In this document: piece by piece, positions 23,678-24,975 of the stretch
Layout: each line of letters starts with the position of its first letter
Position numbering within the stretch: position 1 is the first letter of the stretch
Assembly: GCA_028693705.1 (NCBI GenBank)
Contig: JAQUUX010000005.1
Location: forward strand, 1 to 63,546
Direction of reading: 5' to 3'
Origin: Lachnospiraceae bacterium
GTDB taxonomy: Bacteria > Bacillota > Clostridia > Lachnospirales > Lachnospiraceae
Length of the DNA: 63,546 nucleotides
The notes under the pieces: model-generated
What the model saw: only the letters and a program-made list of their open reading frames with translations
Database searches by the model: none
What the model was told of the DNA's origin: nothing
Position numbers and translations under genes: made by a program

Positions 23678-24604
23678 TTATTCTTCAAATGGAATAACTG
23701 CTCCATCATAGGTATTCTGGATAAAAGCTTTGATCTCATCTGACTTTAATACATTGACAAGAGCCTGAATACTTTCTGTATTTTCATTACCTTCTTTTAC
23801 AGCAATAATGTTTACATAAGTTTTAGCTGCTTCCGAATCTGAGGTTTCATATGCAACAGCATCTTTAGAAACAGAGTAACCGGCTTCCAATGCATAATTG
23901 CCATTTAAAACAACAAATGCAACCTCATCTGTAACTCTGGCAACCTGTGCTGCTTCCAATTCCACAATATCGATTTTTTTGGGATTTTCTGCAATGTCAT
24001 TTATGGTTGCTGTCAGTCCTGCACCTTCTTTTAGTGTGATAATACCGTTATCCTGTAACAGCAGCAATGCCCTTGCCTCGTTTGTTGTGTCATTTGGAAC
24101 TGCGATTGCATCGCCTTCTTCCAGGTCATTTAAATCTGTTTTAGTACCGGGATAAATACCAAATGGCTCGTAATGAATCTTTCCGGCAGTTACCAGGTGC
24201 GTTCCTTTTTCTTTGTTAAAACTCTCCAAATACGGTACATGCTGAAAATAATTTGCATCAAAGTCCCCGGCTTCTACAACTTCGTTTGGCTGTACATAAT
24301 CATTAAATACTGTAATATCCAGATTCCAGCCTTCTGTTGCCAGAATTTTCTTCGCTTCCTCTAAAATCTCTGCATGAGGTGTTGCTGATGCTGCGATCTT
24401 AATGGTTCCTTTTGTTTCTACAGCTGTAGTTTCAGTTACTTTAGTACTTTCTGTTGCTGTACCATCTGCCTGCGTTTCTGTCCCGACTGCCTGACTTTCT
24501 GCAGTATCTGCTGTTGTTCCTGTTGCAGCTGTACTGCCACATCCTGCCAAAACTCCTGTTGCTACCACTCCTGCTAAAATTACACTTACGATATTCTTTT
24601 TCAT
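23678..24604 (-). CDS. metQ: methionine-binding lipoprotein, MetQ/NlpA family
   Basis: A 308-aa binding lipoprotein, lipidated on Cys22 (VLAGC). The start at 24604 is set by GGAGG eight bases upstream; the in-frame ATG five codons earlier is part of that ribosome site. NlpA/MetQ motifs include IKIAASATPHAEIL, DFDANYFQHVPYL, AIPND-like AIAVPNDTTNEARALLLLQ and ALEAGY. It normally works with MetN and MetI, but neither is in the window, so it is an orphan here. A Thr/Glu-rich stretch of about 40 residues follows the lipobox. Upstream lies a Met-rich leader peptide with a terminator, so expression is probably controlled by methionine supply. Confidence 0.9.
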   Translation of the reverse strand: MKKNIVSVILAGVVATGVLAGCGSTAATGTTADTAESQAVGTETQADGTATESTKVTETTAVETKGTIKIAASATPHAEILEEAKKILATEGWNLDITVFNDYVQPNEVVEAGDFDANYFQHVPYLESFNKEKGTHLVTAGKIHYEPFGIYPGTKTDLNDLEEGDAIAVPNDTTNEARALLLLQDNGIITLKEGAGLTATINDIAENPKKIDIVELEAAQVARVTDEVAFVVLNGNYALEAGYSVSKDAVAYETSDSEAAKTYVNIIAVKEGNENTESIQALVNVLKSDEIKAFIQNTYDGAVIPFEE

Positions 24605-24691
24605 ATTATTTTCCTCCAATTTTTAATTTTTATTCTGATCCGTCTCTCTAAGAACCATTTTCCCGGCCCTGCAGACGTGTGCCTGTTTGGT

Positions 24692-24727
24692 AAAAAAATA
24701 GAGCAGGCACACGAATGTACCTGCTCT
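24692..24727 (-). terminator. attenuator terminator in the metQ leader
   Basis: On the - strand, AGAGCAGGTACA (24727-24716) pairs along its whole 12 bp with TGTGCCTGCTCT (24711-24700), one pair being G-U, around a TTCG tetraloop, followed by seven T. It lies between the leader peptide and metQ, about 60 bases after the leader stop codon and about 90 bases before the metQ start. A ten-base segment further on (24685-24676) is the exact complement of the loop and 3' arm and could form a competing hairpin. Confidence 0.92.
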
Positions 24728-24784
24728 TCTTCATTTTCTTTGTTGAAAGCTTCTGGCTTTATGGTTACTCAAAGAATTTCGAAA

Positions 24785-24901
24785 TCAGATAATCAAACGC
24801 GCACAAAAATCTGCCATGTCCATATGCATCATCATACACATGTTTCCACAGCTACACATCATCATATCCTGCATCATTACCAGATGTTTTGTCGTTCTCA
24901 T
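24785..24901 (-). CDS. methionine/cysteine-rich leader peptide of metQ
   Basis: A 38-aa reading frame with a good ribosome site (AAGGAG, 8 bases before ATG), too short for usual gene callers. Twelve of its 38 residues are Met, with clusters at 9-10, 13-15, 21, 23-25, 27 and 29, and four are Cys (16, 18, 22, 33); a core segment reads MMMCSCGNMCMMMHMDM. It is followed by a strong terminator and then metQ. This is the classic arrangement of a ribosome-mediated attenuator: scarcity of charged methionyl-tRNA would stall the ribosome in the Met codons and change folding downstream. A hairpin of TTCTTTG with CAAAGAA lies between stop codon and terminator. An alternative is a tiny metal-binding protein; the position before metQ argues for a leader. 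Confidence 0.8.
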   Translation of the reverse strand: MRTTKHLVMMQDMMMCSCGNMCMMMHMDMADFCARLII

Positions 24902-24946
24902 ATTGATTTCTCCTTTCTTCCAAGTTTTATTTTTTTGATTTTTTAA

Positions 24947-24975
24947 AGATTAGCACACTATTTTCCAAAAATCAA
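24947..24975 (-). promoter_or_regulatory. promoter of the metQ leader transcript
   Basis: TTGATT (24975-24970), a 17-base spacer and TAATCT (24952-24947) with an extended TGn before it. The -35 overlaps the end of mnmA. It lies about 45 bases before the leader peptide start. No SAM-I (S-box) or T-box core was found in the roughly 350-bp leader. Confidence 0.55.

What the first reader, a model, noticed from the sequence alone, without database searches (positions are those of the whole stretch)
24620..24975. Methionine/cysteine-rich leader peptide attenuator upstream of metQ
Between mnmA and metQ lies a promoter-like site, a 38-aa ORF with a strong ribosome site in which 12 residues are Met and 4 are Cys, then a 12-bp TTCG-capped terminator, then metQ. 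Firmicutes normally control methionine genes with SAM riboswitches or T-boxes, neither of which is seen here. A ribosome-mediated attenuator reading Met codons in a Clostridia would be an unusual and possibly undescribed control mode.
Basis: partly seen in the sequence, partly recalled or inferred. Interest (0 to 1): 0.88.

Follow-up and report, generated by a model that had tools for sequence, protein, structure and literature searches.

The report
Methionine/cysteine-codon attenuator before metQ
In front of a methionine-uptake gene (metQ) this bacterium carries a 38-residue reading frame packed with methionine and cysteine codons followed by a terminator-like hairpin, and related bacteria carry similar arrangements before sulfur amino-acid genes; it likely switches the gene on when ribosomes stall for lack of methionine or cysteine.

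Summary
In detail: on the minus strand between mnmA and metQ lie an SD-preceded 38-codon ORF (12 Met, 4 Cys; 24901-24785), a 12-bp TTCG-capped terminator (24727-24700) and metQ (ATG 24604). The ORF is the most Met/Cys-rich of 1151 short ORFs in the window. No Rfam family matches the window.

Comparison supports the interpretation. Similar ORFs with terminators precede metNIQ, metQ, metY and cysK in many Lachnospiraceae and some other Clostridia: 17 dense ORFs in 339 kb upstream of metQ, 1 in 1.94 Mb elsewhere. Two architectures occur. In the window's (A) the antiterminator strand is the last codons plus the stop; true leader-terminator pairings beat 20,000 of 20,000 permutations. In B, also present in this genome, the antiterminator follows the codons directly and covaries. 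In the family, S-boxes read sit at metK (17 of 19 loci, two cut off).

Most likely: ribosome-mediated transcription attenuation responding to Met/Cys starvation. Untested at the bench; for the window alone the antiterminator is only suggestive (p = 0.076) and equilibrium folding favours the terminator. My searches listed no Met-codon attenuator.

The parts
24947..24975 (-). promoter-like site TTGATT-17-TAATCT with TG before the second hexamer (weak)
   Evidence: read by eye; not among the scanner's sites, which give another 9-of-12 site at 24988-24960
24910..24916 (-). ribosome site AAAGGAG of the leader ORF
   Evidence: sequence
24785..24901 (-). leader peptide ORF, 38 codons, 12 Met and 4 Cys
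   Evidence: similar ORFs in relatives
24815..24877 (-). Met/Cys codon cluster, codons 9-29, inferred stalling region
   Evidence: codon positions; stalling is inferred
24785..24805 (-). predicted antiterminator strand, TGTGCGCGTTTGATTATCTGA, last codons including the stop codon
   Evidence: duplex -15.4 kcal/mol, p = 0.076 for the window alone; swap test over 16 leaders
24707..24724 (-). terminator 5' arm, loop and start of 3' arm that pair with the antiterminator strand, GCAGGTACATTCGTGTGC
24700..24727 (-). intrinsic terminator hairpin, 12 bp, TTCG loop
24692..24698 (-). T tract of the terminator
   Evidence: sequence
23678..24604 (-). metQ, methionine-binding lipoprotein gene (ATG 24604; SD TTGGAGG 24619-24613)
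   Evidence: Pfam Lipoprotein_9 E 1.7e-84; NCBIfam MetQ/NlpA models hit below their cut-offs

Best explanation
The metQ leader holds a 38-codon ORF rich in Met and Cys codons, then a terminator-like hairpin, then metQ, and it is predicted to work as a ribosome-mediated transcription attenuator that would turn metQ on when charged Met-tRNA or Cys-tRNA runs short. Shown by sequence: the ORF, its ribosome site, the hairpin with its T tract, the gene order, and similar leaders before sulfur amino-acid genes in other genera. Inferred: when both amino acids are plentiful the ribosome reaches the UGA stop and covers the antiterminator strand (24805-24785), so the terminator folds and transcription ends before metQ. 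When Met or Cys is scarce the ribosome stalls in the Met/Cys cluster (codons 9-29); the stop-codon region is then free to pair with the terminator's 5' arm and loop (24724-24707) before the 3' arm is complete, and RNA polymerase reads on into metQ. In the second architecture (class B, also in this genome before a family-3 binding-protein gene) the antiterminator strand follows the Met/Cys codons directly.
For: ORF first of 1151 in the window for Met/Cys. Enrichment: 17 SD-ORFs with at least 6 Met/Cys in 10 residues in 339 kb upstream of metQ in 80 named loci, 1 in 1.94 Mb of the remaining sequence, both strands. Terminators after 27 of 31 leaders by script, one of them misplaced. Downstream genes are metNIQ, metQ, metY, cysK or cystine-type uptake in most loci read. 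Class A pairing: swap test 0 of 20000 permutations as good, 16 leaders; shuffles, 11 of 17 leaders at p <= 0.05; in 12 of 17 the best duplex ends within 8 bases of the stop codon's end. Class B antiterminator: 9 of 16 pairs with two-sided changes, 0 of 500 shuffles. Met and Cys codons replace one another at fixed positions before CGA in class B. A simple model of transcription up to the terminator's 5' arm, loop and first bases of the 3' arm gives the antiterminator fold with the ribosome at codons 14, 15, 21 or 29 and not at the stop.
Against: At equilibrium the terminator wins in the window at all five simulated ribosome positions and without a ribosome, so the switch depends on the order of folding. 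In the window the antiterminator duplex is 4.6 kcal/mol weaker than the terminator and has p = 0.076 alone; for its terminator the own leader ranks 6th of 16. 59 of 80 metQ loci show no such ORF at density 5 or more. The SD pattern was widened after two leaders had been missed. No expression data.
Confidence: 0.82

Rival explanations
1. The Met/Cys-rich peptide is a nascent-chain sensor: a metabolite (Met, SAM, Cys) or a metal such as copper makes the peptide arrest its own ribosome, and the same RNA switch follows.
For: The peptides contain CxC, MCxM and MHM motifs, and class B keeps a core RMLxSRA.
Against: The class B core is explained by the antiterminator strand that it encodes; the class A peptides share little beyond Met and Cys; Met and Cys codons replace each other at fixed places; the genes behind are mostly sulfur amino-acid genes.
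Confidence: 0.06
2. The ORF is an independent small gene (for instance a metal-binding small protein) with its own terminator, and metQ has its own promoter downstream.
For: A 12-bp terminator stands between ORF and metQ; the peptide is rich in Met, Cys and His ligands.
Against: The terminator partners the ORF's own last codons across leaders; the arrangement recurs before sulfur genes; no scanner promoter lies between terminator and metQ.
Confidence: 0.07
3. The leader is an unknown metabolite-binding riboswitch and the Met/Cys richness is a by-product of the RNA sequence.
For: The leader folds better than shuffles (z -4.2).
Against: No Rfam match in the window or in ten leader loci; class A leaders align poorly outside the stop region and the terminator; Cys codons vary between TGT and TGC and exchange with ATG.
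Confidence: 0.03
4. Chance: a random Met/Cys-rich ORF in front of an ordinary terminator.
For: Most metQ loci sampled lack such an ORF (59 of 80).
Against: First of 1151 ORFs in the window and the enrichment upstream of metQ.
Confidence: 0.01

Closest known systems
Leader-peptide attenuators of amino-acid operons (His, Leu, Thr, Trp, Ile/Val, Phe)
   Same: Short translated ORF with codons of the amino acid concerned, terminator and competing antiterminator, cognate genes behind.
   Different: Codons are Met and Cys together; host is Clostridia; in class A the antiterminator strand includes the stop codon. PMC3766115 (passages) lists His, Leu, Thr, Trp, Ile/Val and Phe; Met is not named there.
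Leader peptides in Firmicutes (His leaders in bacilli; leucine-rich attenuator peptide in Staphylococcus aureus)
   Same: Ribosome-mediated attenuation in Gram-positive bacteria that also use T-boxes.
   Different: Other amino acids. PMC2965389 seen as passages; PMC5794164 seen only as search listing with the start of its abstract.
Cys-codon leaders (cys operons of Mycobacterium, Propionibacterium acnes, cbs of Bifidobacterium; uORFC-8-2 before cysS in Rhodobacterales)
   Same: Runs of Cys codons in a short ORF before sulfur genes.
   Different: No Met codon signal described in the passages seen; the actinobacterial ones lack obvious terminators (PMC1262725, passages); uORFC-8-2 is in alphaproteobacteria (PMC8632094, passages).
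SAM-I riboswitch (S-box, RF00162) and T-box (RF00230)
   Same: Transcription attenuation; in other families of the same order S-boxes lie before metNIQ.
   Different: They sense SAM or uncharged tRNA by RNA alone; no match in the window.

Membership tests
ribosome-mediated transcription attenuator | short ORF with a ribosome site, rich in codons of the amino acid concerned | tested here: met
ribosome-mediated transcription attenuator | intrinsic terminator between ORF and gene | tested here: met
ribosome-mediated transcription attenuator | antiterminator that uses ORF sequence and excludes the terminator | tested here: inconclusive
   window alone p = 0.076 and weaker than the terminator; class A as a whole supported by swaps, class B by covariation
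ribosome-mediated transcription attenuator | genes behind the leader act in uptake or synthesis of that amino acid | tested here: met
   metQ in the window; metNIQ, metY, cysK and others in relatives
ribosome-mediated transcription attenuator | read-through rises when the charged tRNA is scarce | not testable with these tools
   needs expression experiments
SAM-I riboswitch (RF00162) | match to the covariance model at the locus | tested here: not met
   no match in the window at gathering score; the genome's one match lies on contig C6 before a metK-like gene
T-box (RF00230) | match to the covariance model at the locus | tested here: not met
   no match in the window at gathering score; 13 matches elsewhere in the genome

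The most novel reading that the evidence does not exclude
Clostridia, above all Lachnospiraceae, run an unrecognised sulfur amino-acid regulon through attenuators that read Met and Cys codons together, in two architectures; it took over methionine and cystine uptake and metY from the SAM riboswitch, which was left at metK, and in class A the terminating ribosome on the stop codon is itself the off-switch.
Probability: 0.68. Interest if true: 0.82.

Novelty: new variant of a known kind. Interest (0 to 1): 0.75.

Why it matters
Methionine control in Firmicutes is usually described through SAM riboswitches, Met T-boxes and a few DNA-binding regulators. A Met-codon attenuator senses translation itself rather than SAM, and here Met and Cys codons are mixed, so one leader could report shortage of either sulfur amino acid. 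Leaders of this kind were found in cultured species (Roseburia inulinivorans, Anaerobium acetethylicum, Anaerocolumna aminovalerica), so the idea is directly testable. It would also explain many unannotated short ORFs and point to new sulfur genes behind such leaders, for example a sulfopropanediol-dehydratase-like gene (L226).

Tried and rejected
Searching 60 relatives with the single peptide found nothing convincing (best hit outside the own genome E 0.0055, with a stop inside); the family appeared only after scanning upstream of metQ genes (where 11 of 27 printed ORFs were taken as leaders). The window's genus holds only this genome. Pairing with the terminator's 5' arm alone gave weak, shifting partners in class A; including the loop and start of the 3' arm gave a consistent partner at the stop codon. 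The thought that the Met/Cys codons themselves are the class A antiterminator strand was dropped for that reason. A long-range stem around the window's terminator was set aside because its 3' half is made after the termination decision. The MAFFT alignment of class A (A5) was too gappy for pair counts. NCBIfam knows none of three leader peptides, Pfam not the window's. One search failed (file name) and was repeated.

Of 20 class A leaders named one (L201) was not located; one search left out L200 and L053 (no terminator recognised), so 17; one search also left out L198 (near copy of L137), so 16. One search matched 33 of 35 class B loci; one search aligned 29 of them (L220, L231, L156, L171 were cut too long). 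One search used 38 of 40. The SD pattern was widened between and after L137 and L145 had been missed.

Full report
What is there. On the minus strand between mnmA (ORF ends 24972) and metQ (ATG 24604) the sequence holds an SD-preceded ORF of 38 codons at 24901-24785, MRTTKHLVMMQDMMMCSCGNMCMMMHMDMADFCARLII, with 12 Met and 4 Cys, a terminator with a 12-bp stem and TTCG loop at 24727-24700 followed by ATTTTTTT, and metQ. metQ is an NlpA/MetQ-type lipoprotein gene (Pfam E 1.7e-84; NCBIfam models hit below their cut-offs). No metN or metI lies beside it; metN-, metI- and metQ-like genes lie together on contig C103 of the same genome, where only 242 bases upstream are on the contig and show no Met/Cys-rich ORF. 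The leader ORF ranks first of 1151 short ORFs of the window by Met+Cys fraction and by local density. The promoter is only plausible. No Rfam family reaches its gathering score in the window.

Relatives. The peptide alone finds nothing convincing in 60 relatives. Scanning upstream of metQ homologues did: from 83 loci, 27 ORFs passed a loose filter and 11, the window's included, were taken as leaders. Ten are in other genomes, for example MVALGHQHSWSTDMMMCSCGIMCGMHMVDDTVIFDAQ (L044) and MRYKVSQSNNMNMMMCCGHMCGSMYMAYCCACYDT (L047) before metNIQ-like operons, and others before metY-like or binding-protein genes whose operons also hold metQ. In 80 named loci around metQ, almost all labelled Lachnospiraceae or Clostridiales, SD-ORFs with at least 6 Met/Cys in 10 residues number 17 in 339 kb upstream of metQ on its strand, against 1 in 1.94 Mb of the remaining sequence of the same loci, both strands; with density 5 the numbers are 23 and 7. 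By locus, 21 of 80 have such an ORF at density 5 or more, two of them doubtful (L125, L135), and 59 have none. The SD pattern had been widened after a first pass. Named carriers include Roseburia inulinivorans DSM 16841 (L116), Anaerobium acetethylicum (L119), Anaerocolumna aminovalerica DSM 1283 (L165, evidently the same contig as L047) and Anaerotignum sp. MSJ-24 (L184). By eye the closest leader to the window's is L137, MRTTFHQNMNQNMMMTGCDSMCMMCMMDMAY. L167 and L187 carry two such ORFs in a row. A script found a terminator after 27 of 31 leaders, one call being misplaced.

Two architectures. Class A, the window's, has an MMMC-type cluster and often a terminator 5' arm like CAGGTACAT. Class B has a cluster ending in CGA ATG, then CTCCCGGGCA. 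A profile of class A peptides matched 11 of 397 family genomes at E 0.01 or better: four places are leaders in the profile itself, five are further leaders (L198, a near copy of L137; L199, L200, L201, L203) before metN-like, cystathionine-type or cysK-like genes, and two (L202, L204) show no leader. A class B profile matched 42 of 397. Of 26 class B loci read beyond the training ones, 14 precede a metY-like gene, 5 a family-3 binding protein (in L228 the ORF is doubtful), 1 cysK, 3 other genes (a GST-like, a cyclase-like and a sulfopropanediol-dehydratase-like gene) and 3 show no leader. I checked examples with NCBIfam: metY-like L214 (TIGR01326, above cut-off), cysK L223 (TIGR01139, above cut-off), MetN L044 (TIGR02314, below cut-off), the binding protein L209 (best cystine model below cut-off); the rest are read by eye. 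At class level 11 of 391 genomes matched class B at E 0.001: the window's own and ten outside its family. Nine of the ten carry the leader core (in L243 the ORF ends right after the Met/Cys codons), before MetQ-like (five), amino-acid permease (two), metY-like (one) or cysK-like fragment (one) genes; L241 does not. The window's own genome carries a class B leader at G000:C68:7557-7655 before a family-3 binding protein and permease. Ten leader loci gave no Rfam match.

The switch. In class A the strand that can compete with the terminator is mostly the last codons including the stop codon. In the window TGTGCGCGTTTGATTATCTGA (24805-24785) pairs with GCAGGTACATTCGTGTGC (24724-24707) at -15.4 kcal/mol, against about -20 for the terminator. 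Of 17 leaders tested, the best duplex ends within 8 bases of the stop codon's end in 12, and is at least as strong as the terminator in 11, but not in the window (loop costs not included). Against mononucleotide shuffles 11 of 17 have p at or below 0.05, combined 1e-11; the window alone gives 0.076, and leaders are not fully independent. In a swap test of 16 leaders no permutation of 20,000 was as good as the true pairing, although the window's leader ranks only 6th of 16 for its own terminator and L044's 12th. In class B the antiterminator (CTCCCGGGCA with TGCCCGGGAG, extended by ATGGCC with GGCCAT) has 90.5% of cells paired over 29 leaders, with two-sided changes at 9 of 16 pairs and in 21 cells; 0 of 500 shuffles reach this, and slid versions reach at most 6 pairs and 10 cells. 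The own-genome copy L209 shows ATGACC with GGTCAT. The codons before CGA are Met or Cys in 33, 38, 33 and 27 of 38 leaders at positions -1 to -4, with TGT, TGC and ATG replacing one another; the loci were found with a peptide profile, which favours this.

Against. Folding the window's leader at equilibrium gives the terminator at five simulated ribosome positions and without a ribosome. Only with the RNA cut at the start of the terminator's 3' arm does the antiterminator dominate, for a ribosome at codons 14, 15, 21 or 29, and it is lost with the ribosome at the stop. That is the order in which the RNA is made, but the balance is a prediction. Most metQ loci sampled lack such a leader; many show instead a TATAG...CTATAAC-like palindrome (by eye), perhaps a transcription-factor site.

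Place among known control. Of 37 genomes of the family, the own one included, 30 have an S-box match (stricter filters). Of the 19 family loci read, 17 show a metK-like gene behind it (by its TSESVTEGHPDK start, name recalled) and 2 run off the contig; 13 further matches were not read. None of the family's listed S-boxes lies within 10 kb of a strong metQ match. In 5 of 24 same-order genomes outside the family an S-box lies about 2 kb upstream of metQ on the same strand (G037, G041, G042, G049, G059), with an ABC ATPase gene next in the three read (L085, L086, L087). G037 has both: an S-box before one such operon and a class A leader (L080) before another. T-boxes are plentiful, 13 in the window's genome. 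That the attenuator replaced an S-box in the family is an inference from this pattern.

Literature. Searches (open-access full texts only) listed no Met-codon leader-peptide attenuator that I recognised. PMC3766115, PMC2965389, PMC1262725 and PMC8632094 were seen as passages: attenuators for other amino acids, His leaders in bacilli, Cys-codon leaders in Actinobacteria and Rhodobacterales. Subscription papers and preprints are not in the library, so an earlier description is possible.

Verdict. Anatomy, recurrence and co-variation are shown; stalling and the response to methionine and cysteine are inferred.

Noticed in passing
24713-24704 with 24685-24676, minus strand: The terminator's 3' arm CGTGTGCCTG is perfectly complementary over 10 bases to CAGGCACACG just downstream, so a second hairpin could form after read-through.
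   Followed up: no
24785-24760 region with 24665-24640 region, minus strand: The minimum-energy fold closes a long-range stem from just after the leader stop codon to just before the metQ ribosome site.
   Followed up: no
G000:C68:7557-7655 (L209): A second, class B Met/Cys leader in the window's own genome, before a family-3 binding protein and permease.
   Followed up: partly
upstream of metN in several of L118-L193: TATAG...CTATAAC-like palindromes before metNIQ operons that lack a Met/Cys leader; possibly a transcription-factor site (by eye).
   Followed up: no
L167:50-373 and L187:3689-3982: Two Met/Cys-rich leader ORFs in a row before the same gene cluster.
   Followed up: no
class B leaders, alignment A4 columns 7-12: CGAATG right after the Met/Cys codons is invariant in 29 of 29 aligned leaders and can pair with CRTTCG in the following stretch in several; perhaps a pause hairpin (by eye).
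   Followed up: no
L226: A class B leader before a sulfopropanediol-dehydratase-like glycyl radical enzyme gene (NF048011, below cut-off, fragment).
   Followed up: partly
window 23586-19129, minus strand: After metQ come a terminator-like hairpin (23539-23510), a P-II-family gene and ABC transporter genes with a TOBE-type ATPase and a family-8 binding protein, polyamine-type by their order.
   Followed up: no
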